A DNA stretch of 64,000 nt from Diabrotica undecimpunctata. Its lineage: Eukaryota > Arthropoda > Insecta > Coleoptera > Chrysomelidae. Where the stretch lies: contig NC_092806.1 in assembly GCF_040954645.1 (NCBI RefSeq), positions 80,014,641-80,078,640 of the forward strand, written 5' to 3'. Both the position numbers and the translations under genes were made by a program. Shown here one piece after another: positions 6,420-46,530 of this stretch. How positions within the stretch are numbered: the stretch's first letter is position 1; each line of letters begins with the position of its first letter. Below the pieces are notes generated by a model. It worked only from the letters and a program-made list of their open reading frames with translations. It had not been told where the DNA came from and did no database searches.

Positions 6420-9200
6420 CCGTTATCAATTTATTATCAAAATGTTGGTGGATTAAGAACAAAACTAAAGTCTCTGGAAATTGCCATAGCTCAATGTAAT
6501 TATCATATAATCATTTTGGTGGAAACTTGGTTAACTTGTGAATATGGCGATGCAGAATTAGGACTTATTGGTTATAACGTGTTTAGAAATGATCGTAATC
6601 CTGCTTCTACAGGAAAAACTAGGGGTGGAGGTGCGCAGAAAGTGATAATCCCCGATTGTGAAGTAGAACAAATGTTTGTATCACTGAAAGTTAATAATAA
6701 GTGCATAGTTTTGGGTGGAGTTTATATCCCTCCTGCATCCGACCTAAAAGTATACATGTTGCACTGCAGTTCAGTTGAATATGTGATGGAGAAGTGTGAA
6801 AACTTGTTACTGTGTGGTGATTATAATTTGCCAAATGCTTCCTGGGGTAATGACAACTTTGGATTAAATGTTGAATGCCCTGAAGACTATCCTGCTGTGT
6901 ATTTGGCTATTTCTTTTGGTTATTTTAATATGTTTGAAATAAACAATTTACCTAATAGTCGTAATGTCTTTCTAGATTTAGTATTTACTAATTTAAATAA
7001 TGTTGATGTAGTTATTCCACTTGATTCACTATTTGATAATAGTATCCACCATTCACCTATAATTGTAGAATTAATGGTTTTGAAAAGCATGATCAACTGA
7101 ACTACGAGGAATTTTATTATGATTTTAAAAATGCAAATTACATTGGACTAAATGATTACTTTGCAAATTTAAATTGGGACTTACTTTTATCAGATGATGT
7201 GAATTACAGCTTAGCAGTATTTTATGATTTTATGTTTATAGGTTTTGACTTCTTTGTTCCGATCAAAAAATTTAAAACAAGTTCGTTTCCGATTTGGTTT
7301 AATGGTAAATTAAGGAAGTTGATATATTTAAAAAAGAAAATACATAAGCAGTATAAATTTTTTGGTAGAAGGGATGATTATTTAAGATTTTCTCAGTTAA
7401 GAAATGAATGTAAACAAGTCTCCTCTCAATGTTATAGTAACTATTTGAATAATATTGAGAATGGGATTCTATCTAATCCTTGACATTTTTGGAAGTATAT
7501 CAATAATAAACGTAACAGTTATAATCTGCCATCTAATATGTTCTACGGTGATAGTACAAGTGATAATGCTCAAGACGTAGTTAATCTATTTGGTAAGTTT
7601 TTCTCAACTACATATTCTAATTCTAAAATTAATCAGACCCCAATTTTTAACTATCAGCAGAGTGTAAATGTGAATAATTATAGTATTGAGGTCTCTGACA
7701 TAATTGATAGTGTTTTAAAGATGCCTTGGAAATTATCGCTTGGACCAGATTGTTTGCCAGCTTATGTTCTCAAGCATTGCATTTTTACTCTTGTAAAACC
7801 TATCTGCTACTTATTTAATTCCTCATTGAGTACCGGCTTCTTTTCTGATCTTTGGAAGACTAGTTATTTAACACCAATTTTCAAATCTGGTAATAAAAAT
7901 GATGTTGAAAATTATCGAGCGGTTTGTAACCAATCTGTATTACCCAAACTTTTTGAGTGTCTTGTAAATAACTTTTTGACATGGAATTGTAAAGATTTAA
8001 TTGATGTTGGACAACATGGCTTTTCTAAAGGTAAGTCTACATGCACGAACTTAATATTGTATACGAATTTTATAGCTAATTCAGTGGAACAGAAGGGTCA
8101 GGTTGACGCTATCTACACAGACTTCTCAAAAGCCTTCGATAGAGTTAACCATGATCTGCTTATTGCTAAATTAAATGGCTATGGATTTGCAGGTAAAATA
8201 ATTGAGTGGATAGGTAGTTATATATCTGGTAGATGTCAGTATGTTAAATATGGAAATTGTTTATCTCAACGAGTATCTGTAACCTCAGGAGTTCCTCAGG
8301 GGCATCATATTGGACCTCTCTTATTTAATATATTTGTTAATGATATATCCTCAGTGATTAAAAATAGTAAATTTCTAATGTTTGCTGATGACCTTAAAAT
8401 ATTTCGAATAGTTAATGACCTAGTTGATGCCTCTTTCTTACAGAATGACATTAAAAGCTTAGCTAGTTGGTGTGAGGCAAACATGCTATACTTAAATATA
8501 CAAAAATGTTTTAAAATTACTTTTGGAAGAACAAGAGAGTTTGTAAATTATGATTATTGTATAAATAATGTACATTTAGAGGCACGTCATAATATTAAAG
8601 ATTTAGGTATAAATTTTGATTCTAAACTAACTTTTAAATATCACATTAACGAAACTTCAGCTAAAGCTTTAAAAATGTTGGGATTTATTCTTAGAAACTG
8701 TAATCAGTTTTCAGTACAAACTTTAAAAATGTTATACTGTAGTTTAGTTCGATCAGTTTTGGAGTATGGTTCTCTCATTTGGTCTCCTTCATATAACAGT
8801 GACATCTACAGTATCTAGAGAGTTCAAAATAAATAAATTCTTGAGGGTATGTGCTTACAAAATTGGTTTTATTAGACATCAATACACATATGATGATGTA
8901 CTGTCAATACTAAATATCTCATCACTACATGATAGAAGATGTCAAGCGGATTTATGTTTCCTTTTTAAAATTATAAATGGATATGTTCAAGATCCAGAGT
9001 TACTAAGTTTAATAAATTTTAATGTTAATACTAGAAGAACTCGTAACACTGAGATTTTCAACATTCCATTCCACACTACGAATTATGGCCAAAATGAACC
9101 CATTACAAAAATTTTACGAACTGCCAATGAGCACAGCAATAGTTTAGAGTTATTTGGAATATCTACAGCAACATTTAAGAAATCATTTGAGAGATTTTGA
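6420..9200 (+). pseudogene. LINE-B copy 1 ORF2: endonuclease plus reverse transcriptase
   Basis: Would nick target DNA and prime reverse transcription there. Endonuclease signatures in order: YYQNVGGLRTKLKSL, VETWL, RGGG, GGVYIPP, CGDYNLP, LDLVFTN, HHSPI. Reverse transcriptase: SKAFDRVNHDLL, SGVPQGHHIGPLLFN (the usual GS is GH), MFADDLKIF (catalytic FADD), then LEYGSLIWSPS. No RNase H domain follows. Breaks: the endonuclease seems to lack a short segment after RGGG; frameshift near 7085; TGA at 7481-7483; TAG at 8816-8818; and a 4-bp duplication near 8832 absent from copy 2. RT block 7538-8815 is otherwise open. Confidence 0.85.
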
Positions 9201-10391: not shown

Positions 10392-11076
10392 TGTGATGGG
10401 TAGCTCTTTCGGGGCGACAGACTCAGTAAAACACAGGTTTGAAATAAAAATAAATCTATTAAGTATATATATACAATAAATAAAAACTAAAAAAAAGGAA
10501 TTCTACGTTGTATACTTATAAAACAAAAATAAAATGAATTCTACGTTTCCGTCTCGGTCCCGCGATGAATGAATTCCCCGGTAAACACCTATAAAAGAAA
10601 GGAAACTAATTAGTACTACTAATATAGTTGCTTTCGCTTCAATTCAGCGAAAGCTCCGTATATGCTCGCAAACAAAATATTTAGCTGTGCAGACCCACGG
10701 CAATGTTCAATACACAATGCCGACGGGTTCCGCTTGGCTAAGGACAGAGTATGATCCTCAATACGGAAATCTCTGTCCCGGTTGGTTCTGTGCAGATCCA
10801 CGGTAATGCTCAATACGCAATGCCGATGGGTTCCGCTTGGTTAGGGACAGAGTATGATCCTCAATACGGAACTATCTCTGTCCAGAATGTCTCGCTGGTT
10901 CACTACACCGGCGAGTCAGGGAGCCTAGAGCGCTAGCTACAAGACTGTCTAATTCCGCTATTCACACGCCTTAAATAGCCGTTTGAATTCCCCTACGCCG
11001 TCACGTTGTAGAAGTGGATGCGCAAATATTGACACTCCCACGGTTCGAACTGTTAAACGATGAGAGGATCGTTACA
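10392..11076 (-). repeat. Gypsy-1 3' LTR
   Basis: 685 bp. Contains two tandem copies of a 103-bp unit (10687-10789 and 10790-10892, opening GTGCAGAYCCACGG) with about ten differences between units. The same duplication is in the other LTR, so it predates insertion. Confidence 0.9.
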
Positions 11077-11090
11077 CCCCCTTCTCTTTG
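11077..11090 (-). promoter_or_regulatory. Gypsy-1 polypurine tract
   Basis: Minus strand reads CAAAGAGAAGGGGG directly against the 3' LTR, the expected place for plus-strand DNA priming. Confidence 0.8.
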
Positions 11091-11175
11091 AAAAAAAAAA
11101 AAAGTAACATACCTTTTTTTTGTGTATATGGTGTCTACAGCCTCGTGATGCCATCTATCCCTCTCGGTATCTTTA

Positions 11176-14100
11176 TTACAATCTTCCTCCCCACGGTTTT
11201 AAATCTTTTACATGCGCCGTCGTCTGCTTGCGGCTACTACTATCGGCCAATTTCAGTTTTACTATTACTGGTGATATCACTGACGTTACTATGTATGGTC
11301 CTGAGTACTTCGGCGCTAGTTTGCTGGTGAAAGCTGCACTGGCTGATGATAGATGGTGTTCCTTTTTCATGACTCGATCTCCTGGATGCGGCTGCCAGTC
11401 TCTTCGTCTTAGATCGTAATGTTTCTTTTGGTCCTCGAAAGCGTGTTCCATGTGCACTTTCGCTAGTTCTCTTAACGCTTCTAACTTGTTTAAGTTTTCT
11501 GCATACCCCTGTATATCTTGTCCATTTGTCGCCTCTGTTATGTCTAATTCCCTTCCGAAATTAAGAAGCGCTGGTGAAAATCCTGTTGAATCGTGTCTTG
11601 ACGAATTTATGGCGTAGCAGAATTCTGGTATGAATTTGTCCCAGTCTTTATGGTTATCCTCCACGTAAGTAGCTATCATCGTTTTCAGTACTTTGTTCGT
11701 TCGTTCTACTGGATTGCACTGAGGTGAGTACGGCGGTGTTAGAATGTGATTTATGTTATAGGACTTTAGGAACGCCTTAAAATTTCCGCTTGTAAATTGC
11801 GCGCCGTTGTCCGAGATGATTTTCTTCGGGATACCGAATTGCATGACTACTTTAGATCGTAGAGTGTCGATGATTGAGTTCGTAGATGCTGCTCTTATTG
11901 GCTGGGCGACGACCCATTTGGTAAACCGGTCTTGCACGACTATTAAGAAAATGTTTCCTTTTGCAGATCTTGGGAATGGTCCCATTAAATCAACTGAGAC
12001 AGTATGCCAAGGCTTTTCTACAGTGGACGGTTGCATTTTCCCGGCTGGTTGCATTTGAGACGGTTTATATTGGAGGCACTTCGTACAGGCTCTAACGTAG
12101 TCTGCAATTTGTTTAAACATCTTAGGCCAATAGTACTTTTGCGCTATTCGGCAAATTGTTTTTGCAATTCCTAAGTGGCCTGCTGTGGTCGAGTCATGAT
12201 TTTCCTCCAAAATATCTTTCCTTTTATATCTTGGTACGCATAATTTCCATGGGTTATTAAACTCTGGGTCGGCTAAATTACGGCTGTTCCAAACGTGTTT
12301 ATATAATTTCCCGTTTGATATTTGTAAATCCGGGAAATCGTCTGGGTTCTGGAGTACATTCGTATATAAATTATCGTACCAACTGCATGATTCCAGTTCT
12401 GATGCTAATAATTCCGACTCTGGTTCTTCGCTCTGGTTTTCTTGTGGTTGTCGTGACAAAGCATCTGCTACCTTGTTGAGGACTCCCTTTCTATATATTA
12501 CCTCGAAATCGTACTGTTGCAGTTCTAAACTCCACCTGGCTAACCGACCTGACGGGTTTTTAAGGTTCTTCAGCCATTTGAGGGACTGATGGTCTGATAT
12601 GACCTTAAAATTGTATCCTTCTATATACGGCCTCATTTGCTTTATCCCGTACACGATGGATAGACATTCTTTTTCTGTTGTGGAATATTTTGTCTCGGCT
12701 GGTGTGAGGGTTCGACTAGCATATGCAATTACTTTATCCTGGCCGTCGTATTTCTGTGTTAGTGCAACTCCAAGTCCACAGTTCGACGCATCTGTTTGCA
12801 GGTAAAATGTTTTCGAAAAATCGGGGCATGCTAATACTGGGGCCGATGTAAGTTTTGATTTTAGCTCTTCAAACGCGTTTTCCTGCTTATCGGTCCATTT
12901 CCATCTTATCTTCTTCTTCAGAAGCATGTTTAGCGGTCCTGCTATTGTCGAATAGTTCTCTATGAATCGGCGGTACCATGATGTTATTCCTAGGAACCGG
13001 CGGAGTTGACGCACATTTCTCGGTGCTGTAAGTCCGGTTATAGCGTTGGTTTTCTCCGGGTCGGTTTTTATTCCTTCTGCTCCAACCACATGTCCTAAGT
13101 ATTTGAGTTCTGACTGGCAAAACGTGCATTTCTCGAAGTTCAGCTGTAATCTGGCTTCTTTCAGTCTTCGGAAAACTTCATGTAGGTGATTTAAATGCTC
13201 TTGGAGCGTTTTAGATATTACTACGATATCATCCAAGTAGGCAAACGCGAATTCCATATCGGGAGGTATTACCTTATCCAGTAGGCGTTGGAAAGTGGCT
13301 CCTGCGGAATGCAGTCCGAATGGGGTGGTTTTGAACTGAAAATGGCCTTTTCCGGGTACGCTGAATGCTGTCACTGAGCGGCTTGTTTCTTCTAGGGGTA
13401 TTTGAAAATATCGATTCAAATCGAGGGTCGATATAAAATTTGCTTCCTTAAGTCTATCCAGAATTTCCGATATTCTGGGTAACGGATATGCGTCCTTATC
13501 TGATAGTTCGTTGACTTTTCTAAAGTCAATGCAAAATCTGTACGAGTTATCCTTTTTCCTAACTAGTACAATCGGTGAACTCCAACCACTTGTGGAGGGT
13601 TCGATGGTTCCTTCTTTTAACATCTTGTCCACTTCTTGGTTGATGATCTGTAGCATTGCGGGATTGTGCCGCCTATAAGGCTGCTTGACTGGATCGCACT
13701 TTTTCTTCAATTTTATTTCGTGTCTTATTAAGTTGGTGGGTCCTGTTATATTCTCAAACTCCCTTAGTTCTTTTCTTAGGAACCTTTCTAACTCCGTATT
13801 TTGAGTGGAGTCTTTTAAAGTGTTACATGTCTCTTCTTGATGTTGTATGTATTGTTTGGTCGTATGTTTATCGAATTTAAGTTCGATAGAATGGTTCCTG
13901 AGGAATTCCACTCCTATTAATGCATCTTCCGTCAACCCTGGCATTACTATGAATGTTTGTCGGGTTTGTAACTTATCGATCTCGCATTCAATTGTCAACT
14001 TCTGGTTAAGCTCAATTGACGCTCCATTTGCTAGTCTTGTTCTCCCGCTGTAGCTATCTAGAGAGTCCTTGTATATCTGAGCTATTCTATCCCCGACGTA

Positions 14101-14346
14101 ATTTTTAGTAGTTCCTGTGTCGATGAGCGCTCTGTATGTTCTTTGCCCTATTTTTAGTGATGCGAACAGTCGAATGTCATTGCTTGCTGGCTGTGTAACG
14201 GCGAAAACGAATGGAGTCGAATCTTGTTTTACAGACTGGGACGACTCCTTGTTTCTCCAGTCTGTAATTCGTTTCCCTGACGCCTGAAACAGCAGTCGCT
14301 GCTGTAAACCCCTTCTCTGCCGCAATGCGAACAAAACTTTTTCCAT
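11176..14346 (-). CDS. pol: Gypsy-1 Pol polyprotein
   Basis: 1056-residue open frame, reached from Gag by -1 frameshift. Order: aspartic protease (ALIDTGTT, DTG at residues 76-78); reverse transcriptase (LDLNRYFQIP near 308, YLDD at 370-373); RNase H (TDASNCGLG near 518, SDHQSLKWL, ADALSR); integrase with an HHCC zinc finger (H..H....C..C around GHLGIAKTI and ACTKCLQYK) and a DDE core (SVDLMGPFP, SDNGAQF, NPVERTNK). The C-terminus has the usual basic integrase tail (HVKDLKPWGGRL). All catalytic residues are present and there are no stops. The ATG at 14346 is probably not used; translation enters at the slip site near 14271. Confidence 0.92.
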   Translation of the reverse strand: MEKVLFALRQRRGLQQRLLFQASGKRITDWRNKESSQSVKQDSTPFVFAVTQPASNDIRLFASLKIGQRTYRALIDTGTTKNYVGDRIAQIYKDSLDSYSGRTRLANGASIELNQKLTIECEIDKLQTRQTFIVMPGLTEDALIGVEFLRNHSIELKFDKHTTKQYIQHQEETCNTLKDSTQNTELERFLRKELREFENITGPTNLIRHEIKLKKKCDPVKQPYRRHNPAMLQIINQEVDKMLKEGTIEPSTSGWSSPIVLVRKKDNSYRFCIDFRKVNELSDKDAYPLPRISEILDRLKEANFISTLDLNRYFQIPLEETSRSVTAFSVPGKGHFQFKTTPFGLHSAGATFQRLLDKVIPPDMEFAFAYLDDIVVISKTLQEHLNHLHEVFRRLKEARLQLNFEKCTFCQSELKYLGHVVGAEGIKTDPEKTNAITGLTAPRNVRQLRRFLGITSWYRRFIENYSTIAGPLNMLLKKKIRWKWTDKQENAFEELKSKLTSAPVLACPDFSKTFYLQTDASNCGLGVALTQKYDGQDKVIAYASRTLTPAETKYSTTEKECLSIVYGIKQMRPYIEGYNFKVISDHQSLKWLKNLKNPSGRLARWSLELQQYDFEVIYRKGVLNKVADALSRQPQENQSEEPESELLASELESCSWYDNLYTNVLQNPDDFPDLQISNGKLYKHVWNSRNLADPEFNNPWKLCVPRYKRKDILEENHDSTTAGHLGIAKTICRIAQKYYWPKMFKQIADYVRACTKCLQYKPSQMQPAGKMQPSTVEKPWHTVSVDLMGPFPRSAKGNIFLIVVQDRFTKWVVAQPIRAASTNSIIDTLRSKVVMQFGIPKKIISDNGAQFTSGNFKAFLKSYNINHILTPPYSPQCNPVERTNKVLKTMIATYVEDNHKDWDKFIPEFCYAINSSRHDSTGFSPALLNFGRELDITEATNGQDIQGYAENLNKLEALRELAKVHMEHAFEDQKKHYDLRRRDWQPHPGDRVMKKEHHLSSASAAFTSKLAPKYSGPYIVTSVISPVIVKLKLADSSSRKQTTAHVKDLKPWGGRL
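14229..14277 (-). promoter_or_regulatory. Gypsy-1 gag-pol -1 frameshift signal
   Basis: On the minus strand the heptamer GGGAAAC (14271-14277) lies in the phase G GGA AAC of the gag frame. Three nucleotides later starts a perfect 11-bp stem, TTACAGACTGG with CCAGTCTGTAA (arms 14257-14267 and 14229-14239), with a 17-nt loop. The gag stop codon TAA is the last triplet of the stem. Pol is in the -1 frame relative to gag, as the site requires. Confidence 0.85.
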
Positions 14347-15254
14347 GGGTTTTTGCAGTTTTTACGGCTGTGACCTGGCATCTTGCATCTAAAGCATGCC
14401 GTTTTCGCATCGTACTCCGCTTGCTCCGTGCGTCTCCAGTTTCCACGGCAAATCTGATTTGCTCGGGTCTTTTCGTCTTCTAGAGCTTCGTATTCTTGAG
14501 CTAAATCCTGTAATTCGGCTAAGTTTCCGAAATCCCGGCGGCGAGCATAAAGCTTATATTCTGGTAACAAATTTTTGTATATCCTTTCGAGTTCTTGGTT
14601 TTTGGAAAAAGAGCCTTCTCGTCTGATTAATGTTTGAATCTCCGTGATATATCTATCTACTGGTTCGTTCTGTCTCTGTCTTCTGTTTCGGATTTCCTCT
14701 TCTAGTTGTAGCAAATATCCCCTGGGATAGAAAGCTTTTTTAAAATCTTCGTTGAAATCTGTCCATGACTTCCAATTTTTGTTATTGTTTCTGTACCATA
14801 ACAAAGCGTGGTCTCCTAATAATTCAGGTAATGCTCTTAGTAGATCTTGTTTATCGATCTCGTAGGCCAAGCTTAATTCGTCTATCCTCTCTAAGAATTC
14901 TATTGCATCCGAATGTTTCTTGTCGAAGTGTGTGTTCCACTTTCGTACTTGATTTAGCAATTCTGGTTGCCCCATTTGTTTCGTTATTGTTAATTCCTGT
15001 AATAGTCTTCGGATGCCCGAAATTTCCTGGGTCAGTGTGTCGGATTCTGTTCCCTTGGAAATTTTTTCTTTTGGGATTGTTCCTGTAGCTTCCTCGCGAT
15101 TTTTAAAATAGGTTCTGAGTCGTGCTCTCAATTCGTCGACGGTTCCCTTGGGATCTAAGCCGCATTTTTCGGCCTCGCTCTGCAATTCCTCTTTGCAAAG
15201 TCGATTTATCCACGACGTACCTGTTACTGAGTCTGTGTCTTTATCTGTCGGCAT
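14229..15254 (-). CDS. gag: Gypsy-1 Gag with N-terminal SAP-like domain
   Basis: 341 residues. Residues about 14-48 (WINRLCKEELQSEAEKCGL and following) match a SAP motif, a helix-extended-helix DNA/RNA-binding fold. The capsid-like core (about 100-260) has the gag pattern ALLWYRN...W..F...F. The C-terminus has one standard CCHC knuckle (CFRCKMPGHSRKNC) and a second finger-like motif, CSHCGREGVYSSDCC. Start ATG 15254 lies just after the primer site. It overlaps pol by 118 bp in the -1 frame. Confidence 0.85.
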   Translation of the reverse strand: MPTDKDTDSVTGTSWINRLCKEELQSEAEKCGLDPKGTVDELRARLRTYFKNREEATGTIPKEKISKGTESDTLTQEISGIRRLLQELTITKQMGQPELLNQVRKWNTHFDKKHSDAIEFLERIDELSLAYEIDKQDLLRALPELLGDHALLWYRNNNKNWKSWTDFNEDFKKAFYPRGYLLQLEEEIRNRRQRQNEPVDRYITEIQTLIRREGSFSKNQELERIYKNLLPEYKLYARRRDFGNLAELQDLAQEYEALEDEKTRANQICRGNWRRTEQAEYDAKTACFRCKMPGHSRKNCKNPWKKFCSHCGREGVYSSDCCFRRQGNELQTGETRSRPSL

Positions 15255-15267
15255 GTTATTAATTTTT

Positions 15268-15279
15268 GCTCGGGCGCCA
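15268..15279 (-). promoter_or_regulatory. Gypsy-1 primer binding site
   Basis: Minus strand TGGCGCCCGAGC, three bases (AAC) after the 5' LTR. It starts with TGGCGCCC, the start of sites complementary to lysine-tRNA 3' ends in known retroelements; the tRNA assignment is inferred. Confidence 0.7.
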
Positions 15280-15282
15280 GTT

Positions 15283-15857
15283 TGTGATGGGTAGCTCTTT
15301 CGGGGCGACAGACTCAGTAAAACACAGGTTTGAAATAAAAATAAATCTATTAAGTATATATATACAATAAATAAAAACTAAAAAAAAGGAATTCTACGTT
15401 GTATACTTATAAAACAAAAATAAAATGAATTCTACGTTTCCGTCTCGGTCCCGCGATGAATGAATTCCCCGGTAAACACCTATAAAAGAAAGGAAACTAA
15501 TTAGTACTACTAATATACTTGCTTTCGCTTCAATTCAGCGAAAGCTCCGTATATGCTCGCAAACAAAATATTTAGCTGTGCAGACCCACGGCAATGTTCA
15601 ATACACAATGCCGACGGGTTCCGCTTGGCTAAGGACAGAGTATGATCCTCAATACGGAAATCTCTGTCCCGGTTGGTTCTGTGCAGATCCACGGTAATGC
15701 TCAATACGCAATGCCGATGGGTTCCGCTTGGTTAGGGACAGAGTATGATCCTCAATACGGAACTATCTCTGTCCAGAATGTCTCGCTGGTTCACTACACC
15801 GGCGAGTCAGGGAGCCTAGAGCGCTAGCTACAAGACTGTCTAATTCCGCTATTCACA
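15283..15857 (-). repeat. Gypsy-1 5' LTR, proximal part
   Basis: 575 bp (including one CACA duplication copy), matching 10392-10966 of the 3' LTR. It ends at the insertion of the gag-protease element; the remainder of the LTR is at 20910-21019. Confidence 0.9.
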
Positions 15858-17293
15858 TGTCCTCGACGCATCAAGGAATTTGGATATCGGTTAAAATACT
15901 TGGGAATTCCAAGGTTGGCCAAATCCAAATTTCTAATTGATTCGATGCAGGGAAATTCCACTTTCGCTACGTAAAACAAAGGATTTGTTTTACATAAAAG
16001 CAGGTAGATTTTCTCTCATCGATCAGTCGAGCTTGCCTCTTCTACTGTAGACCTAGTCGGTGCTATTATTGTTCCTACTAAGTTATTGTTTTATTTCTGA
16101 TTTATTATATACCATTTTTATTTTAGCATTATTGTATATTCAGACCTTTTCAGGTTAGAATATTACTTTGATCTATATTTGTTCATATACTGATTGTTTG
16201 ATATTTTAATTGGTTATTTTGATTGTTTATTTTTCTTGTATTTTGTGTCTAAGTTGTTCTTCCGTAAGTTAAGAACACTTAGAAATATTTATCTTGCTTT
16301 TTATATTTTATATTTTGATTTGTACTTTGTCTAAGTAGTTCTTTCCGGTAAGTCAAAGAACTCTTAGAAATATTTCTCTGAATATTTGACTTGTTATTTT
16401 AATTGTTTGTCTAAGCCGTTCTTTTCCGGTAAGTCAAAGAACTCTTAGAAATATTTTCATAATCATTGTTGCATTATTATTTCCGATATTTTATCTAAGA
16501 TATTTTTCTTAAGTTAAGAAAATACTTAATACATTTGTTTCTTTCATTTTCTATTTTATGCTAAGTTGTTTCTTCCGTAAGTCAAGAAACACTTAGCAAT
16601 ATTTTCACATCTTTTCTATATTTGATTTTTCTTATTTTCTTTTATAAGTCGTTTCTTCCGTAAGTCAAGAAACACTTATAAATATTTGTGCATTTATTTT
16701 ACTATATTTGATTCTCTTGTTTATTTTCTATTCTAAGTTGTTTCTTCCGTAAGTCAAGAAACACTTAGACATATTTCTATAATCTGTTTCATTTTTGCAT
16801 TTCTCGTTTTATATTTTGAGTATTTTATTTTTCCACTCTAAGTCGTTTCTTCCGTAAGTTAAGAAACACTTAGAAATATTTCCATATTTTACTCTCACAT
16901 TTACATATTTCATTTATCTATATTTCTGTCCTAAGTTGTTTCTTCCGTAAGTCAAGAAACACTTAGAAACATTTTTTTCTTTGCATTATATTTTTATACC
17001 ATTTAATTTAATTGTTTACTAAGTTATTCCTTCCGTAAGCCAAGGAATACTTAGATCATTTTTACCTATCTGTTTTTCCATTTTTGCTCTGTTACTTTGT
17101 AACTGTTCCTTGGAACCGTTACCTATAACAGATATTTGTCACTGGAACTGTTATTTATAACAGCGGTAGTATTTAACCTTTATACCAGCGACAAACCAAA
17201 GATGGTGAATACCCGATCCAATTCCGGGGATAGGAAGAAGCCCGAAGAGCCGGCGATGGGTCCTACAGGCCCAAATGCCCCCTCTCGGCAACA
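15858..17293 (+). repeat. 5' LTR of the gag-protease element
   Basis: 1436 bp, TGTCCTCG...GGCAACA. Contains the ten-hairpin array (16249-17054) and, at its 3' end, the first 92 bp of gag. The ATG at 17202 lies inside the LTR. Confidence 0.92.
16249..17054 (+). repeat. Array of ten covarying hairpins (5' LTR copy)
   Basis: Ten units of about 34-38 bp at 16249, 16331, 16411, 16495, 16561, 16644, 16733, 16838, 16931 and 17019, separated by AT-rich spacers that do not resemble each other closely. Typical unit: CTAAGTTGTTTCTT, loop CCGTAAGTC, AAGAAACACTTAG (one bulged T in the 5' arm). Changes are paired. Unit 6 has A...T where others have C...G at the outermost pair. Unit 10 has ATTCCTT with AAGGAAT. 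Unit 1 has GTTCTT with AAGAAC. Unit 2 has AGTTCTTT with AAAGAACT. Nine units keep GTAAG in the loop; unit 4 does not. Two further stems follow at about 17099 and 17155. Confidence 0.9.
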
Positions 17294-18137
17294 TGGCGCC
17301 CAACCCACTAAAACCGAATCCACGACCCCAGGACCGTCTTCGAGCCAGCCTTCCACAGCTGACTTCATCTCTGCCCTTATGCAAGCGATGACGGCCCTAT
17401 CGACCACTCAAGGCACCACACCCCAGATGCCTCATCCTGAGCCACCGAAGCCCAGGATTTCATATATGAAGCCCCCTCAGTTCTCAGGCCGAGACACTGA
17501 AAACCCTCTCAGCTTTCTAACCAAAGCCGAGACCTTCTTAATCAAACATAAGGTAGACGAGGACCAATGGATCGACTACCTCATAGACAATTCCCTCCAC
17601 GGCGATGCGAAGAAATGGGCTCAGAAATTCTCATACACGGACCTGCCATACACCACATTTCGAGACCGTCTACTAAGGAGATACAATGACCCTGCCGCAA
17701 TTTCAACCCTGACGTCGAAGCTTCATGGAGAACATCAACGTAGAGACGAATCCACGGAGGAGTTCATTAACCAGAAATCTGCCTTATTCAGACGTCTCAT
17801 GCCACATACCCCCGAGGACCAGAGGTGTATAACGATAGCGAACTTACTGAGACCCGACATCGCGATCTGCCTGAGAGCGAACATCCCCAGAACCGAGGAA
17901 GACCTTCTGACAATCGCCCAGGGCATGGAATGTGACATCCGCCGGACCGGCAAACCCCAGCAGCAGCAGCAGCAACAACAGCCGTACCGTCCCCTACGTC
18001 AGGATAACGCTCCACGACACCCTGAGGCGATAGACCAATGGAGGAACCCCAGCGGACAGTACAGGATGCCATCAATGGATCAACCACCACCTCCAACCCC
18101 ACAGAACCAGGGAAACGCCAATCGGGGCGCCAACTGA
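17202..18137 (+). CDS. gag: Gag of the gag-protease element, starting inside the LTR
   Basis: 311 residues from ATG 17202 (context CAAAG before ATG; an upstream in-frame ATG at 17136 is possible but adds a hydrophobic stretch not expected in Gag). The first 30 residues come from the LTR, and codon 31 onward reads through the primer binding site. Order: disordered Pro/Ser/Thr-rich N-terminus (about 1-105); gag capsid-like core (about 110-265: PPQFSGRD, FLTKAETFL, WIDYLIDNSLHGDAKKWAQ, F...LLRRYND); a Q8-9 run; a Pro/Asn/Gln-rich tail. No CCHC knuckle. It assembles RNA-containing particles by family analogy. Confidence 0.85.
   Translation: MVNTRSNSGDRKKPEEPAMGPTGPNAPSRQHGAQPTKTESTTPGPSSSQPSTADFISALMQAMTALSTTQGTTPQMPHPEPPKPRISYMKPPQFSGRDTENPLSFLTKAETFLIKHKVDEDQWIDYLIDNSLHGDAKKWAQKFSYTDLPYTTFRDRLLRRYNDPAAISTLTSKLHGEHQRRDESTEEFINQKSALFRRLMPHTPEDQRCITIANLLRPDIAICLRANIPRTEEDLLTIAQGMECDIRRTGKPQQQQQQQQPYRPLRQDNAPRHPEAIDQWRNPSGQYRMPSMDQPPPPTPQNQGNANRGAN
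17294..17305 (+). promoter_or_regulatory. Primer binding site of the gag-protease element
   Basis: TGGCGCCCAACC immediately after the 5' LTR, the lysine-tRNA-type start TGGCGCCC. It is also codons 31-34 of gag (H-G-A-Q). Confidence 0.85.
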
Positions 18138-19126
18138 ACCCTGTTGTGAAGATGGTGCCCCAACTGAATCCTATTCAGGTACAACCCTCGACAGCAGGCC
18201 TCCCCCAACTCTATGGAAGGATCAACGGGCAGCAAGTGAAGATTTTGGTCGACACCGGTGCCTCCGGGAACTTCGTTCACCAGAGGTTGATCCAGAGACG
18301 GGACCTGCAACGAGGACCAGGACTGGTTCAGCTGGCATGCACGGGCAGCACATCCCGCACCCTAGGGACTGCTGCAGTCAATATGAACATTGACACTCTG
18401 GACACGACTGTAAACTGCATGGTTATGGAGGATTTGAACCACGACGTTGTGTTAGGGATGCCTTGGTTGGAGCAGGAAGAGGCCAATGTAGACATACCCC
18501 GAAAATGTCTACACGCTGGTACTGCCTGCCGAACCACCATCTACTGGGCGACCCCAGCAGAAATGCAAGCCAAACCACAACAGCTGGAATTCCATCAAAC
18601 CCCATCCCAACAAGCAGAGCAGTCAACCCAAGAGGACAATGAAATATTAGACAACCGTCCACGTCAGCCGACCACTGAAGAAACCGAAACAGCGGACATC
18701 AGTACAGGCACGCCCGAAGAAGAAGAAGCCTACGGCGTTCAATTACTAGAGACGATGGAGGACGTCGACGAGGAGGAAGAACCTAGCCTGACAGCAGATG
18801 ACATGCCAGACGCCGAATGCCTTCTATTGATAGAGACAATGGAGCACGGCGACGAGGAGGAGGACACCGACCCCATCCTCGACGGTCCGGTCGACATACC
18901 ACTCCGAGAGGAAATCCGGAGAAGTCACCGGACACACAAGAGAAAGAAACGACTTCGAAGACGCGAGCAGCAAACCTCCGAAGACGTACCCAGGAGCGAG
19001 ATTGAAGAGAATCTCCTCCAAGAGTTCACGATGGTGGACGATGCTGACCATAGGACCCTGACCCCTCCGGACGGACGGGATGAAGGAACCACAGCGCAGC
19101 CGACCGCCAAAGATGAACAAGGATAA
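18038..19126 (+). CDS. pro: Retropepsin-like protease ORF with acidic tail
   Basis: 362-residue frame in -1 relative to gag, overlapping it by 100 bp; entry is expected at the slip site 18110-18116 rather than at ATG 18038. Residues about 58-155 form a retroviral-type aspartic protease: LYGRINGQQVKILVDTGASG (catalytic DTG), NFVHQRLI, then DVVLGMPWLEQ, the flap-end motif of gypsy proteases. After that come about 200 residues rich in Gln, Glu and Asp with repeated LLETMED/LLIETMEHG segments (two copies about 47 residues apart), then a basic patch (RSHRTHKRKKRLRRREQQ). No polymerase motif. Tail function is unknown. Confidence 0.8.
   Translation: MEEPQRTVQDAINGSTTTSNPTEPGKRQSGRQLNPVVKMVPQLNPIQVQPSTAGLPQLYGRINGQQVKILVDTGASGNFVHQRLIQRRDLQRGPGLVQLACTGSTSRTLGTAAVNMNIDTLDTTVNCMVMEDLNHDVVLGMPWLEQEEANVDIPRKCLHAGTACRTTIYWATPAEMQAKPQQLEFHQTPSQQAEQSTQEDNEILDNRPRQPTTEETETADISTGTPEEEEAYGVQLLETMEDVDEEEEPSLTADDMPDAECLLLIETMEHGDEEEDTDPILDGPVDIPLREEIRRSHRTHKRKKRLRRREQQTSEDVPRSEIEENLLQEFTMVDDADHRTLTPPDGRDEGTTAQPTAKDEQG
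18110..18161 (+). promoter_or_regulatory. gag-pro -1 frameshift signal
   Basis: GGGAAAC at 18110-18116 in the phase G GGA AAC of gag. A 7-nt spacer (GCCAATC) precedes GGGGCGCC (18124-18131), which pairs with GGTGCCCC (18154-18161): eight pairs with one G-U. This is the standard heptamer-spacer-stem geometry. The gag stop is in the loop. Confidence 0.87.
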
Positions 19127-19469
19127 GGTCCCATTACGACACGTGGAGATATCAAGGTGAATTGAGTAGCCTTATATCTTCACGACGTCGTAGGACCTCC
19201 TCAGGGTGAATAAAGTAGCCCTGACGGAAGCAGACGAGCCACCCGGCACACCTGGACCAACTGGACCACCTGGGCCTACTGGACCATATACAATTAAGTT
19301 CAAATATCTTAAGTACAATATCTTAGTTTTTTTTTATCTTAAGTCTTTTACATTATATTCTTTTAGGGTAAAAATTTTATTATTGTATTTTTTTTTATTC
19401 TTAAATTGTATTTTTCTATTGTTTTAATAAATTTTCTTAGCACCGTTAGGTCTTTCAGAGGAGGGGGGA
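19127..19469 (+). other. 3' tail of the gag-protease element and polypurine tract
   Basis: Contains two look-alike hairpins, AAGG-TGAATTGAGTAG-CCTT (19154-19173) and AGGG-TGAATAAAGTAG-CCCT (19203-19222), whose stems differ by a matched pair. A short collagen-like coding run follows (GTPGPTGPPGPTGP, 19239-19288) in a 73-residue ORF. The tract CAGAGGAGGGGGGA (19456-19469) abuts the 3' LTR. Confidence 0.7.
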
Positions 19470-20905
19470 TGTCCTCGACGCATCAAGGAATTTGGATATC
19501 GGTTAAAATACTTGGGAATTCCAAGGTTGGCCAAATCCAAATTTCTAATTGATTCGATGCAGGGAAATTCCACTTTCGCTACGTAAAACAAAGGATTTGT
19601 TTTACATAAAAGCAGGTAGATTTTCTCTCATTGATCAGTCGAGCTTGCCTCTTCTACTGTAGACCTAGTCGGTGCTATTATTGTTCCTACTAAGTTATTG
19701 TTTTATTTCTGATTTATTATATACCATTTTTATTTTAGCATTATTGTATATTCAGACCTTTTCAGGTTAGAATATTACTTTGATCTATATTTGTTCATAT
19801 ACTGATTGTTTGATATTTTAATTGGTTATTTTGATTGTTTATTTTTCTTGTATTTTGTGTCTAAGTTGTTCTTCCGTAAGTTAAGAACACTTAGAAATAT
19901 TTATCTTGCTTTTTATATTTTATATTTTGATTTGTACTTTGTCTAAGTAGTTCTTTCCGGTAAGTCAAAGAACTCTTAGAAATATTTCTCTGAATATTTG
20001 ACTTGTTATTTTAATTGTTTGTCTAAGCCGTTCTTTTCCGGTAAGTCAAAGAACTCTTAGAAATATTTTCATAATCATTGTTGCATTATTATTTCCGATA
20101 TTTTATCTAAGATATTTTTCTTAAGTTAAGAAAATACTTAATACATTTGTTTCTTTCATTTTCTATTTTATGCTAAGTTGTTTCTTCCGTAAGTCAAGAA
20201 ACACTTAGCAATATTTTCACATCTTTTCTATATTTGATTTTTCTTATTTTCTTTTATAAGTCGTTTCTTCCGTAAGTCAAGAAACACTTATAAATATTTG
20301 TGCATTTATTTTACTATATTTGATTCTCTTGTTTATTTTCTATTCTAAGTTGTTTCTTCCGTAAGTCAAGAAACACTTAGACATATTTCTATAATCTGTT
20401 TCATTTTTGCATTTCTCGTTTTATATTTTGAGTATTTTATTTTTCCACTCTAAGTCGTTTCTTCCGTAAGTTAAGAAACACTTAGAAATATTTCCATATT
20501 TTACTCTCACATTTACATATTTCATTTATCTATATTTCTGTCCTAAGTTGTTTCTTCCGTAAGTCAAGAAACACTTAGAAACATTTTTTTCTTTGCATTA
20601 TATTTTTATACCATTTAATTTAATTGTTTACTAAGTTATTCCTTCCGTAAGCCAAGGAATACTTAGATCATTTTTACCTATCTGTTTTTCCATTTTTGCT
20701 CTGTTACTTTGTAACTGTTCCTTGGAACCGTTACCTATAACAGATATTTGTCACTGGAACTGTTATTTATAACAGCGGTAGTATTTAACCTTTATACCAG
20801 CGACAAACCAAAGATGGTGAATACCCGATCCAATTCCGGGGATAGGAAGAAGCCCGAAGAGCCGGCGATGGGTCCTACAGGCCCAAATGCCCCCTCTCGG
20901 CAACA
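19470..20905 (+). repeat. 3' LTR of the gag-protease element
   Basis: 1436 bp, collinear with the 5' LTR at a constant offset of 3612 bp. Repeats the hairpin array at 19861-20666 and the truncated gag start at 20814. Confidence 0.92.
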
Positions 20906-20909
20906 CACA

Positions 20910-21019
20910 CGCCTTAAATAGCCGTTTGAATTCCCCTACGCCGTCACGTTGTAGAAGTGGATGCGCAAATATTGACACTCCCACGGTTCGAACTGTTAAA
21001 CGATGAGAGGATCGTTACA
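20910..21019 (-). repeat. Gypsy-1 5' LTR, distal part
   Basis: 110 bp matching 10967-11076 of the 3' LTR. Together with 15283-15857 it makes a 685-bp LTR, exactly the length of its partner. Confidence 0.9.
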
Positions 21020-22252
21020 ACTGTTATATGAAGGAGACCAAATGAGAGAACCATACTCCAAAACTGATCGAACTAAACTACAGTATAACATTTTTAAAGT
21101 TTGTACTGAAAACTGATTACAGTTTCTAAGAATAAATCCCAACATTTTTAAAGCTTTAGCTGAAGTTTCGTTAATGTGATATTTAAAAGTTAGTTTAGAA
21201 TCAAAATTTATACCTAAATCTTTAATATTATGACGTGCCTCTAAAGGTACATTATTTATACAATAATCATAATTTACAAACTCTCTTGTTCTTCCAAAAG
21301 TAATTTTAAAACATTTTTGTATATTTAAGTATAGCATGTTTGCCTCACACCAACTAGCTAAGCTTTTAATGTCATTCTGTAACAAAGAGGCATCAACTAG
21401 GTCATTAACTATTCGAAATATTTTAAGGTCATCAGCAAACATTAGAAATTTACTATTTTTAATCACTGAGGATATATCATTAACAAATATATTAAATAAG
21501 AGAGGTCCAATATGATGCCCCTGAGGAACTCCTGAGGTTACAGATACTCGTTGAGATAAACAATTTCCATATTTAACATACTGACATCTACCAGATATAT
21601 AACTACCTATCCACTCAATTATTTTACCTGCAAATCCATAGCCATTTAATTTAGCAATAAGCAGATCATGGTTAACTCTATCGAAGGCTTTTGAGAAGTC
21701 TGTGTAGATAGCGTCAACCTGACCCTTCTGTTCCACTGAATTAGCTATAAAATTCGTATACAATATTAAGTTCGTGCATGTAGACTTACCTTTAGAAAAG
21801 CCATGTTGTCCAACATCAATTAAATCTTTACAATTCCATGTCAAAAAGTTATTTACAAGACACTCAAAAAGTTTGGGTAATACAGATTGGTTACAAACCG
21901 CTCGATAATTTTCAACATCATTTTTATTACCAGATTTGAAAATTGGTGTTAAATAACTAGTCTTCCAAAGATCAGGAAAGAAGCCGGTACTCAATGAGGA
22001 ATTAAATAAGTAGCAGATAGGTTTTACAAGAGTAAAAATGCAATGCTTGAGAACATAAGCTGGCAAACAATCTGGTCCAAGCGATAATTTCCAAGGCATC
22101 TTTAAAACACTATCAATTATGTCAGAGACCTCAATACTATAATTATTCACATTTACACTCTGCTGATAGTTAAAAATTGGGGTCTGATTAATTTTAGAAT
22201 TAGAATATGTAGTTGAGAAAAACTTACCAAATAGATTAACTACGTCTTGAGT
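21020..22252 (-). pseudogene. LINE-B copy 2 ORF2, reverse transcriptase part
   Basis: Open minus-strand frame from the truncation point at 22252 to the Gypsy-1 insertion. Contains SKAFDRVNHDLL, SGVPQGHHIGPLLFN and MFADDLKIF, as in copy 1. The endonuclease is missing because of 5' truncation. Confidence 0.85.
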
Positions 22253-44534: not shown

Positions 44535-46530
44535 ATGACCAAAAGAAAGTTAACCGTAACGGAGCTTGTAGATATAATTGAGAACTTGTCTGATTTTGAT
44601 GAAGACGAACACTATCTAGCGGATTTAGACGACGAGTCCGAATCAGATGATGATTATTTGTCGAAAGCTAGTGTAGAGAAGGATGAACAAATATCAGAGG
44701 AAAATCCATGTAAGTATTAAATAAAACGTAGATATCGACTAGAAAACTTTATAATAAAATTTGAGCTATTGAAGAACACATCAGAAACAGTCAACCAGAA
44801 ATGTATGTTGCAAAAGATAAAACTGAGTGGTTATCACAACCTTTTCCGACTGGACGAACACGAATTCAGAATATGGTAAAAGGACCATTACACACAGTTC
44901 AACTTCCACCTGGAACACTCATTAAAGAACTAATAGATACATTTCGCTTATATTTGACTGAAAATATTGTGGATGACATTGTCCGTTACACCAATATAGA
45001 GGCTCATCCTGTATTGCAAAATAAACCATGGAAGTCCTGTGATAGAATTAAAATGTATGCTTTCTTTGGCCTCCTGTTCACCGCTGGATATCTAAAATCA
45101 AACTATGCAAGTTATAAAGCTTTGTGGAATTCAGTTTATAGACCACAGATTTTTCGAGTCATTATGGGTATAAATATGTTCAAAGAGCTTTTACGTTTTA
45201 TTCATTTCGACAAGATCCGAGAGACGTAAAAAAGATAAACTGGCTGCTATACGGAATATATGGAATAAAATATTAGGAAATTTGAAAAAGCATTATTTGC
45301 CAGGATGAAATATAATAATCGACGAGCAGTTGATACCTTATCGTGGAAGATGTCCGTTCAAACAGTATATTCCCACAAAACCCGAAGTATGGGATGAAAA
45401 TATGGTGGGCATGTGACTCAGAAACTTTTTATCCTCTAAATGCGATTCCATATCTCGGCAAAGAAGGTAACCAAGTAGCTACTGGTTTGGTACGTAAAGT
45501 AGTAGAATCACTAAGCGAACCTTATTACCAAACCAACAGGGACATAACATTATGGCTTATATTTCTAACATATATGGCTTATAATATGCTATCTAATGGT
45601 TTAACAATTGTTGGCACAGTTAGAAAAAATAAAAGGTTTATTCCTCCTGAATTTCAACCATGTAAGAACAAGGAGCAATAATTGTCTTCTACAATTGGAT
45701 TCACAAAAAAGGCGACAATGGTATCATACGTGCCTAAGCCTAAGAAAAGTGTCATAGTGTTGTCAACAATGCAATACTCGAATGACACTGGAGAAGAGGT
45801 GAACCATAAACCAGAGATTATTCTCTACTATAATAAAACAAAAGATGGAGTTGACTTGCTTGACCAGATGGTGCATCAATATATGTGCAAACGTAGAACA
45901 AACCGTTGGACTTTTCCATTTTTTATGAACATGTTGGATGTATGCTGTCTAGCATCTTATGTTATCTGGACCAACCTGCATCCAAAATGGAACATAAAAA
46001 GACACGAAAAAAGATGTCTATTCATAATTGAAACAGCAGAACAATTTATAAAGCCCCATATTATCCGCAGATCAAACGTAGGACTGTCTAAATCAACCAG
46101 ATCCCTTTTGGCGAACTTTGCAGGAGAAGCAACTGCCACAAATGCTGCATACATGGAGTTGACTTGCTTGACCAGATGGTGCATCAATATATGTGCAAAC
46201 GTAGAACAAACCGTTGGACTTTTGCATATTTTATGAACATGTTGGATGTATGCTGTCTAGCATCTTATGTTATCTGGACCAACCTGCATCCAAAATGGAA
46301 CATAAAAAGACACGAAAAAAGATGTCTATTCATAATTGAAACAGCAGAACAATTTATAAAGCCCCATATTATCCGCAGATCAAACGTAGGACTGTCTAAA
46401 TCAACCAGATCCCTTTTGGCGAACTTTGCAGGAGAAGCAACTGCCACAAATGCTACAACTCAGTCAACAAAAAAGAAGATGTTACTTATGTCCATCAAAA
46501 GAATCAAGAACACGAAAACAAACGTATAAT
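44535..46530 (+). pseudogene. piggyBac transposase (broken)
   Basis: Starts MTKRKLTVTELVDIIENLSD with an acidic N-terminus. After a stop at 44718-44720 the frame resumes: FPTGRTRIQNMVKGPLHTVQ, YTNIEAHPVL, IKMYAFFGLLFTAGYLKSN. Near 45320 [20 protein letters not shown] carries the first catalytic D in a shifted frame. Then [38 protein letters not shown] (the second-D region TNRDITL is decayed), and DGVDLLDQMVHQYMCKRRTN with the third D. It binds TTAA-flanked ends by family analogy. At least four frame breaks and a 308-bp tandem duplication of the C-terminal part. Confidence 0.85.
45847..46461 (+). repeat. 308-bp tandem duplication in the piggyBac transposase
   Basis: GGAGTTGACTTGCTTGACC at 45847 recurs at 46155. 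The copies run in parallel to GCAACTGCCACAAATGCT and differ by only a few bases (for example CCATTTTT versus GCATATTT). The 308-bp period is not a multiple of three, so it shifts the frame. Confidence 0.9.

What the first reader, a model, noticed from the sequence alone, without database searches (positions are those of the whole stretch)
16249..17054. Ten-unit array of covarying hairpins in the LTR, loops showing a splice-donor core
Seen directly: ten hairpins spaced about 65-105 bp apart, each about 34-38 nt, with unrelated AT-rich spacers. Stem differences between units are paired (C-G to A-T in unit 6; GTTT/AAAC to ATTC/GAAT in unit 10; unit 1 and 2 variants), so pairing, not sequence, is kept. 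Nine loops keep GTAAG, most as CCGTAAGT or CCGGTAAGT, complementary to the U1 snRNA 5' end. Inference: an RNA (or cruciform) structure under selection that may bind U1 or a protein, block premature polyadenylation, mark the RNA for packaging, or shape translation of gag, whose ATG lies 150 nt downstream. The array is doubled in the 3' LTR (19861-20666). I know of no described LTR with this design.
Basis: partly seen in the sequence, partly recalled or inferred. Interest (0 to 1): 0.9.

Follow-up and report, generated by a model that had tools for sequence, protein, structure and literature searches.

The report
Conserved hairpin array in beetle retrotransposon leader
A family of jumping genes in the southern corn rootworm beetle carries a string of about five to eleven small, evolutionarily protected hairpins in the RNA stretch ahead of its first gene, probably a repeated docking site for a protein, which is an unusual design for such elements.

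Summary
The array is real: 18 of 31 strict hairpins in the 64 kb lie in its two copies. It sits in the LTR of a young Ty3/gypsy-type element (15858-20905) with gag and protease but no RT or integrase, in a genome inferred to be Diabrotica undecimpunctata. All 111 keep at least 5 units. Stems and loops collect tip-branch mutations like spacers but about three times fewer internal-branch ones (stem 43:138, spacer 207:239, p=1e-7), so they are under purifying selection. The small 5' bulge is kept as a shape (831 of 917 hairpins) while its letter drifts. Double Watson-Crick changes make up 4 of 14 shared but 2 of 93 singleton variants. The leader is purged of upstream AUGs (1.5 against 11.7 expected), so ribosomes probably scan through the array. 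I read it as an RNA-level, multivalent protein-binding array, most likely for Gag recognition and packaging. No ligand is known; DNA-level action is not excluded (internal G-U and A-C changes are equal). The U1/splice-donor reading is possible but weaker.

The parts
15858..17293 (+). 5' LTR (1436 bp), TG...CA ends, contains promoter-like motifs, array and the first 92 nt of gag
   Evidence: self-blastn 99.93% to the 3' copy; one mismatch at 16020
15854..15857 (+). target-site duplication CACA, left copy (right copy 20906-20909)
   Evidence: the empty site is the undisturbed LTR of the host element at 10963
15993..16027 (+). TATA-like CATAAAAG and initiator-like TCAGT; inferred start of transcription near 16025
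   Evidence: sequence; the motif pair is found in 106 of 116 sequences, span 35 nt in 92 and 31 nt in 14; start site not shown
16026..17201 (+). inferred 5' leader of the gag RNA, 1176 nt, T-rich, one upstream ATG (16558)
   Evidence: 1 ATG against 12.1 expected on +, 22 against 18.7 on -; 111 leaders 1.5 against 11.7
16249..16282 (+). hairpin unit 1 (6-bp inner stem)
16331..16367 (+). hairpin unit 2 (loop CCGGTAAGTC; paired insertion in the inner stem)
16411..16448 (+). hairpin unit 3 (2x1 internal loop instead of a 1-nt bulge)
16496..16528 (+). hairpin unit 4, degenerate loop CTTAAGTT in this copy
   Evidence: CCTTAAGTT or CCGTAAGTT in some relatives
16561..16596 (+). hairpin unit 5 (G-C instead of T-A at 16560/16597)
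16644..16679 (+). hairpin unit 6 (A-T instead of C-G at its base)
16733..16768 (+). hairpin unit 7
16838..16873 (+). hairpin unit 8 (paired changes at 16837/16874 and 16838/16873 in relatives)
16931..16966 (+). hairpin unit 9
17019..17054 (+). hairpin unit 10 (two paired changes in the inner stem)
17088..17197 (+). further small predicted hairpins between the array and the gag ATG
   Evidence: MFE fold; not tested for conservation by pairs
17202..18137 (+). gag ORF (Ty3_capsid PF19259, Retrotrans_gag), starts inside the LTR, no CCHC knuckle
17294..17304 (+). primer binding site TGGCGCCCAAC, inside gag
   Evidence: sequence; tRNA-Lys type is recalled, not tested
18110..18116 (+). -1 frameshift heptamer GGGAAAC in the right phase between gag and protease
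   Evidence: frameshifting inferred
18038..19126 (+). protease ORF with acidic tail; no RT, RNase H or integrase domain found
   Evidence: Pfam gag-asp_proteas 2.1e-12 and no RT or integrase family; one longer relative carries RNase H and integrase
19457..19469 (+). polypurine tract AGAGGAGGGGGGA
19470..20905 (+). 3' LTR with the second copy of the array (19861-20666)

Best explanation
The array is an RNA-level, repeated recognition element in the translated 5' leader of a Ty3/gypsy-type LTR retrotransposon family. A typical unit is a hairpin of about 13 pairs in two stem halves, with a one-nucleotide 5' bulge and a nearly invariant C-N-GUAAG loop core. Units stand apart on U-rich spacers like beads on a string. 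Shown here: the units, their retention in the leaders sampled, purifying selection on stems and loops, a bulge kept in shape but not in letter, and an AUG-purged leader. Inferred: the RNA strand is the working form; several units are bound together by a multivalent protein; the likeliest ligand is the element's own Gag, marking genomic RNA for packaging, also for internally deleted copies such as this one that must be served in trans. Small hairpins (-11 to -16 kcal/mol, unit 4 -6) would let ribosomes scan through, so one RNA can be both gag mRNA and packaged genome. Estimated odds: selected structure 0.9, RNA-level 0.7, Gag/packaging as the function 0.35.
For: Selection: internal:tip changes are stem 43:138, loop 17:63, against spacer 207:239 and pre-array 124:119; tip changes per site in these classes are 0.54-0.71, so the mutation rate is not lower in hairpins (Fisher against spacer 9.6e-8 and 2.4e-5). 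A tree-free count agrees: stem 17 shared to 92 single, spacer 117 to 114, p=3e-10; loop 12 to 36, p=0.001. Structure: the interruption is 1x0 in 831, 2x1 in 82 and 2x2 in 4 of 917 strict hairpins, while bulge letters change like spacers (16:21, p=0.73). Pairing: arm swaps; double Watson-Crick changes in 4 of 14 shared against 2 of 93 singleton variants, p=0.0025. RNA: the AUG purge is strand-specific; new ATGs appear on tips (16 of 711 changes) more than on internal branches (2 of 374), p=0.043, with nine control trinucleotides at p 0.14-1. Trans use: this copy shows no RT/IN yet its LTRs differ at 1 of 1436 sites, and a piece (L011) between two array hits 6.0 kb apart encodes RNase H and integrase. 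Redundancy: some whole-unit losses are shared, one pattern by 10 loci and a 6-unit pattern by 2 (segmental copies not excluded).
Against: Strand: internal Watson-Crick to G-U and to A-C changes are equal (10 and 10; tips 34 and 37), so pair changes do not single out the + RNA, and the - strand folds as well. Pair-keeping changes on internal against tip branches reach only p=0.056. Stems are also conserved in sequence, so pairing is not the only thing kept. The hairpin finder behind the bulge count asks for an interruption unless the stem runs 10 pairs or more, so shorter bulge-free hairpins would be missed. The pre-array leader also has fewer shared variants than spacers in the tree-free count (p=0.017). 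No CCHC knuckle was found in Gag, so the usual packaging domain is missing, and no binding was tested. Transcript ends, splicing and poly(A) site are unknown. Nothing outside this one genome was available: no confirmed relative in viral contigs or genome contigs.
Confidence: 0.42

Rival explanations
1. DNA-level array: repeated binding sites for a chromatin or transcription protein in the LTR, working like the 12-site Su(Hw) insulator in the gypsy 5' UTR (or an enhancer), or a cruciform.
For: The gypsy insulator has the same plan: many sites separated by AT-rich DNA in a transcribed leader (PMC2374998, passages read). Internal G-U and A-C changes are equal, as DNA-level selection predicts. Both strands fold equally.
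Against: The Su(Hw) core TGCATA does not occur in the LTR on either strand and the 12-bp consensus has 0 matches. Complementary arms, paired indels and a one-sided bulge of free letter are not needed by a sequence-reading DNA protein (inference). The AUG purge shows that the + RNA of this region is itself under selection.
Confidence: 0.2
2. U1 snRNP docking: GTAAG loops bind U1 to stop premature poly(A) or to tune splicing, as the structured major splice donor does in foamy virus LTRs.
For: GTAAG is nearly invariant in nine units (909-916 of 913-918 letters per position); no AATAAA or ATTAAA on the + strand of the LTR; foamy precedent for a U1 site inside LTR R controlled by structure (PMC3694450, abstract and passages).
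Against: The nine loops give 4.6-9.3 kcal/mol of U1 pairing against 14.0 for the consensus, and -1 is C in seven of nine. The C at -2 is nearly as invariant (902 of 912). Unit 4 lacks GT in 91 of 96 leaders that have it. The AUG purge of the whole leader argues that gag RNA is not spliced there.
Confidence: 0.13
3. Translation control only: the units let or help ribosomes cross a long U-rich leader (shunt, IRES, or regulated start), with a host RNA-binding protein as ligand.
For: AUG-poor 1.2-kb leader directly before the gag ATG; hairpins of -11 to -16 kcal/mol, unit 4 -6.
Against: Scanning needs no repeated sequence-specific hairpins; conserved loop letters imply a ligand (inference).
Confidence: 0.15
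4. Mutational by-product: tandem duplication plus palindrome correction or template switching keeps arms complementary with no function.
For: Units are apparently gained and lost whole (gap runs of about one or two units); the spacers after units 5 and 6 are homologous.
Against: Tip mutations are about as frequent in stems as in spacers and mostly unpaired (2 double Watson-Crick of 93 singletons), while internal changes are depleted threefold. Correction would tend to erase the interruption, which is present in all 917 strict hairpins counted, the finder's limit being that bulge-free stems under 10 pairs are missed. Unit-specific arms are not homogenised.
Confidence: 0.05

Closest known systems
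Ty1 5' leader (TIPIRT domain) and retroviral packaging/dimerisation signals
   Same: Structured RNA at the 5' end overlapping the start of gag, with hairpins whose mutation hurts retrotransposition and whose compensatory changes rescue it; an internally deleted mini-Ty1 is mobilised in trans (PMC5454406, passages).
   Different: A few different hairpins and a pseudoknot within 380 nt, not ten near-equal units over 0.8 kb; here there is no evidence yet for Gag binding.
Drosophila gypsy insulator (12 Su(Hw) sites in the 5' UTR)
   Same: Repeated motif with AT-rich spacers in the leader of a gypsy element (PMC2374998, passages).
   Different: The element is 340 bp and its sites share a TGCATA core that is absent here; hairpins are not part of its description in the passages seen.
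Foamy virus R-region splice donor with U1-controlled poly(A)
   Same: U1-complementary site in LTR-encoded structured RNA, present in both LTRs (PMC3694450).
   Different: One donor with a known poly(A) signal; here nine loops, no canonical poly(A) hexamer in the window LTR and a weak U1 fit.
Non-autonomous LTR elements that keep gag (recalled class)
   Same: LTR, PBS, PPT, gag and protease kept, RT and integrase lost.
   Different: Ordinary in this respect; the array is shared with longer relatives, not specific to the deletion form.

Membership tests
Ty3/gypsy LTR retrotransposon | direct LTRs with TG...CA ends, short target-site duplication, PBS and PPT | tested here: met
Ty3/gypsy LTR retrotransposon | Ty3-type capsid and aspartic protease | tested here: met
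   PF19259 2e-9, PF13975 2.1e-12
Ty3/gypsy LTR retrotransposon | RT, RNase H and integrase (RNase H before integrase) | tested here: not met
   not found in this copy; RNase H then integrase found in one longer relative, L011, so this copy is read as a non-autonomous derivative of the lineage; RT itself lay outside the piece read, and L012 and L013 were fetched but not analysed
Gypsy-type Su(Hw) insulator | cluster of Su(Hw) consensus sites | tested here: not met
   0 consensus matches on either strand, 0 TGCATA in the LTR
Gypsy-type Su(Hw) insulator | enhancer-blocking activity | not testable with these tools
   needs a reporter assay
Retroviral/Ty1-like packaging signal | conserved structure in the 5' leader near gag | tested here: met
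   that the RNA form is the selected one is inferred
Retroviral/Ty1-like packaging signal | Gag binding and need for RNA encapsidation | not testable with these tools
   no binding or particle data
U1-dependent LTR poly(A) control | strong U1 complementarity | tested here: inconclusive
   5-7 bp, -2.6 to -9.3 kcal/mol over the ten units, consensus -14.0
U1-dependent LTR poly(A) control | canonical poly(A) signal in the LTR to be suppressed | tested here: not met
   no AATAAA/ATTAAA on the + strand of the window LTR; variant signals not excluded; 40 of 116 family leader segments have one or two
Rfam families | match to a described RNA family | tested here: not met
   15858-20905 at E up to 1: only two hits to one family, far below its cut-off and outside the array

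The most novel reading that the evidence does not exclude
A previously undescribed kind of retroelement cis-signal: a long, scanning-compatible leader built as five to eleven interchangeable bulged hairpins with one nearly invariant loop, read by a multivalent protein, so that the number of units can change freely while unit identity is selected. It could give a Gag without zinc knuckles its RNA specificity.
Probability: 0.3. Interest if true: 0.8.

Novelty: new variant of a known kind. Interest (0 to 1): 0.62.

Why it matters
How Ty3/gypsy elements choose their RNA is poorly known outside yeast (recalled). Here one genome offers 111 distinct natural variants of one modular leader, with selected and neutral mutations separable, so the ligand and the rules of recognition can be tested with short leader pieces alone. 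It also shows a simple way, tip against internal changes among element copies, to tell functional hairpins in repeats from mutational by-products. The apparent lack of a CCHC knuckle in Gag makes the question of RNA choice sharper.

Tried and rejected
Related DNA elsewhere: a 16-mer loop pattern gave two stretches in viral contigs (L001, L002); with the unit model L002 scored 18 bits (E 0.57) and L001 had no hit up to E 10, so both were dropped as chance. Gag and other patterns gave no confirmed relative there or in genome contigs. Protein searches found two D. undecimpunctata proteins and no others at E 0.001. Rfam: nothing relevant. GNRA tetraloop reading of CGUAAG: pair probability 0.34-0.74 in nine units, and the second loop letter is invariant although GNRA allows any, so it is not adopted. 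Dispersed miniature hairpins: in the window the best model hit outside the two LTRs has E 0.26. miRNA-like precursors: stems too short (recalled size rule, not searched). MAFFT places units 1-3 out of pairing register, so mixes substitutions and paired indels; the hand-set structure was used for claims.

Rows dropped: from 116 sequences (115 loci plus the window), L034, L036, L089 (under 300 nt of leader matched; cause not examined) and L010 (the window's own 3' LTR) were left out and one identical copy was collapsed, giving 111. L001, L002 and the internal pieces L011-L013 were not in the 116. Sampling was by nearness to two queries: 25 of 40 array hits (8 given as loci, 17 fetched) and 90 of 150 scored gag hits (30 as loci, 60 fetched), so copy counts are not genome totals. 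The genome searches listed 1118 and 4152 candidates but scored 40 and 150.

Full report
What is there. The window lies in contig C4 (163,134,084 bases) of a 1.74-Gb assembly. The only proteins found close to its gag are from Diabrotica undecimpunctata, on a contig of the same length, so the host is inferred to be that leaf beetle. The finding sits in a complete-looking LTR element at 15858-20905. The LTRs are 1436 bp and differ at one base. CACA is duplicated on both sides, and the undisturbed empty site survives in the other LTR of the older minus-strand element that was hit. A PBS follows the 5' LTR and a polypurine tract precedes the 3' LTR. The gag ORF (Ty3_capsid) starts inside the LTR at 17202. 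A protease ORF follows in the -1 frame, with a GGGAAAC heptamer in the right phase. No RT, RNase H or integrase was found in this copy. Several pairs of array hits in the genome lie 5.6-6.0 kb apart instead of 3.6 kb, and a piece between one such pair (L011) encodes RNase H and integrase; two similar pieces (L012, L013) were fetched but not analysed. So this copy is read as a young internally deleted derivative.

The unit. Ten units occur in each LTR. The general form is C-TAAG, two letters, a 6-8 bp inner stem, a loop of 9-11 nt (5 nt in unit 4), the inner stem back, one letter, CTTA-G. In most units one of the two 5' letters can pair with the single 3' letter, leaving a one-nucleotide 5' bulge. 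Differences between units are mainly paired: unit 10 differs by two pairs in the inner stem, units 6 and 5 by one pair each in the outer stem, units 1-3 by a paired deletion, units 2-3 by a further paired insertion, and unit 2 by A-T for T-A next to the bulge (hand alignment). Own arms pair better than swapped arms: 1 of 200,000 swaps does as well; rank 1 of 120 for five distinct units, 1 of 720 for six, 2 of 5040 for seven. Over 167 distinct GTAAG units from the family the mean inner stem is 6.2 pairs with own arms and 4.2 with swapped arms. On the MAFFT alignment 6 of 14 pairs have changes on both sides and 0 of 500 shuffles reach this, but that alignment is out of register for units 1-3.

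The leader. A TATA-like box at 15993 and an initiator-like TCAGT near 16025 recur in 106 of 116 sequences (span 35 nt in 92, 31 nt in 14), so the array should lie in a leader of about 1176 nt. That leader has one ATG where 12.1 are expected, while the opposite strand has 22 where 18.7 are expected. With its 3' LTR copy it has the lowest ratio among 630 window-strand tests of the 64 kb. Over 111 leaders the mean is 1.5 against 11.7, and only two ATG columns are common (16558 in 89 loci, 16185 in 54). New ATGs arise on tip branches (16 of 711 changes) more than on internal ones (2 of 374; p=0.043, one of ten trinucleotides tried). This says that ribosomes probably scan the unspliced leader. It ties the array to translated RNA, though it does not prove that the hairpins act as RNA.

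Selection. I compared 111 distinct leaders, 71-100% identical to the window's by best local match. In copies of a transposable element, mutations on terminal branches are largely post-insertion and neutral, while those on internal branches passed through active elements (established reasoning; not tested here). Tip changes per site are similar in stems (0.575), loops (0.708) and spacers (0.687). Internal changes per site are 0.179, 0.191 and 0.595. The ratio in stems (43:138) and loops (17:63) resembles that of the gag coding start (16:49) and differs from spacers (207:239), with p=9.6e-8 and 2.4e-5. A count of shared against single variants without any tree agrees (stem p=3e-10, loop p=0.001); there the bulge (p=0.34) and 3' flank (p=0.55) do not differ from spacers, while pre-array (p=0.017) and gag start (p=0.049) do. 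The recurring 3' flank is not constrained on the tree either (19:25, p=0.75). So stems and loops are functional parts, and neutral duplication with palindrome repair is not enough.

Structure or sequence. Both are kept. Among variants shared by at least three loci at paired sites, 4 of 14 are double Watson-Crick changes, 5 are G-U, 2 A-C and 3 others; among 93 singletons the counts are 2, 25, 28 and 38. Pairing is kept in 9 of 14 shared and 27 of 93 single variants (p=0.014). On the tree, pair-keeping changes are 26 of 46 internal and 50 of 128 tip (p=0.056). The bulge is the clearest sign: its letters are as free as spacer (16:21, p=0.73) but the interruption is 1x0 in 831 of 917 strict hairpins, 2x1 in 82 and 2x2 in 4. 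The finder would list a bulge-free hairpin only if it had 10 or more pairs in a row, and none was listed. Against a pure RNA reading, internal changes to G-U and to A-C are 10 and 10, and either strand folds equally.

Loop. Over nine units in 111 leaders the letters at GTAAG are 99% or more invariant, and so nearly is the C two places before it (902 of 912). The place before G is mostly C (686) or G (210). The two letters after GTAAG vary (4 internal changes each). Unit 4 has T in 90, G in 5 and C in 1 of 96 leaders at the place of the G of GTAAG. U1 pairing would explain GTAAG but not the C, the rarity of G at -1, or unit 4. A GNRA cap would explain C and GUAAG in part but not the fixed second letter. 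A protein that reads the loop is the simplest account (inference).

Number of units. The strict search finds 0-10 TAAG-loop hairpins per sequence (0 in 1, 1 in 2, 3 in 1, 4 in 1, 5 in 4, 6 in 10, 7 in 16, 8 in 34, 9 in 26, 10 in 21 of 116). The covariance model, run on 26 chosen loci, finds 11 in L120, L111 and L039 among others. In the 111 leaders all keep at least 5 of the window's ten units by alignment. Gap runs remove about one or two whole units, and some patterns are shared (0110111111 in 10 loci, 1111001111 in 6, 0000111111 in 2), so lineages with fewer units seem to have multiplied, although segmental copies are not excluded. This fits a redundant multivalent array.

Mechanism. I favour an RNA binding array in the gag leader. 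Gag is the first candidate because the signal is in cis on genomic RNA, is kept in a deletion derivative that needs proteins from other copies, and no CCHC knuckle was found in the + frames of any of 116 sequences or of the window's gag and protease region (many loci hold only part of gag), so specificity must come from elsewhere. A host protein serving translation, stability or export is the main RNA-level alternative. DNA-level action like the gypsy insulator is the main other rival, though no Su(Hw) consensus occurs in the LTR. U1 docking is possible, with foamy virus as precedent (PMC3694450), but fits the details less well.

Novelty. Searches of the open-access library listed no paper that, from title or abstract start, describes such an array; most subscription papers and Repbase are not in it, so prior notice cannot be ruled out. 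Papers were seen as follows: PMC3694450 outline, abstract and passages, PMC2374998 passages, PMC5454406 passages, PMC8982398 passages (on gypsy elements and genome size in Diabrotica), PMC5902531 passages; the rest only as listings. Structured retroelement leaders are known; a long modular array of one selected hairpin is, as far as I can tell, a new variant.

Noticed in passing
10392-21019: The element is inserted in the LTR of an older minus-strand element (pol-like ORF 11176-14346, gypsy type by eye, not searched) whose LTRs carry a 103-bp tandem repeat; an inverted fragment pair (7569-8800 / 21020-22251) flanks it, so the region is a nest of insertions.
   Followed up: partly
about 18058-19002 (by comparison with P0001): A database gene model of a relative joins gag to the tail of the protease ORF as if an intron were removed; whether RNA supports this is unknown.
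   Followed up: no
18110-18116: GGGAAAC slippery heptamer in the right phase for -1 frameshifting from gag to protease.
   Followed up: partly
15858-16030: U3 folds into strong hairpins (-56.6 kcal/mol for 15858-16030), including a perfect 10-bp stem just before the TATA-like box (not compared with shuffles).
   Followed up: no
19426-19431: AATAAA lies 38 bp upstream of the 3' LTR while the LTR + strand has no AATAAA or ATTAAA, so 3' end formation is unclear.
   Followed up: no
16558: The single upstream ATG, at a column with ATG in 89 of 111 leaders, opens a 12-codon uORF that spans hairpin unit 5.
   Followed up: partly
45845-46454: A direct duplication of about 302-308 bp (99%) whose translation looks like a piggyBac-type transposase (name recalled from the letters, not searched).
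   Followed up: no
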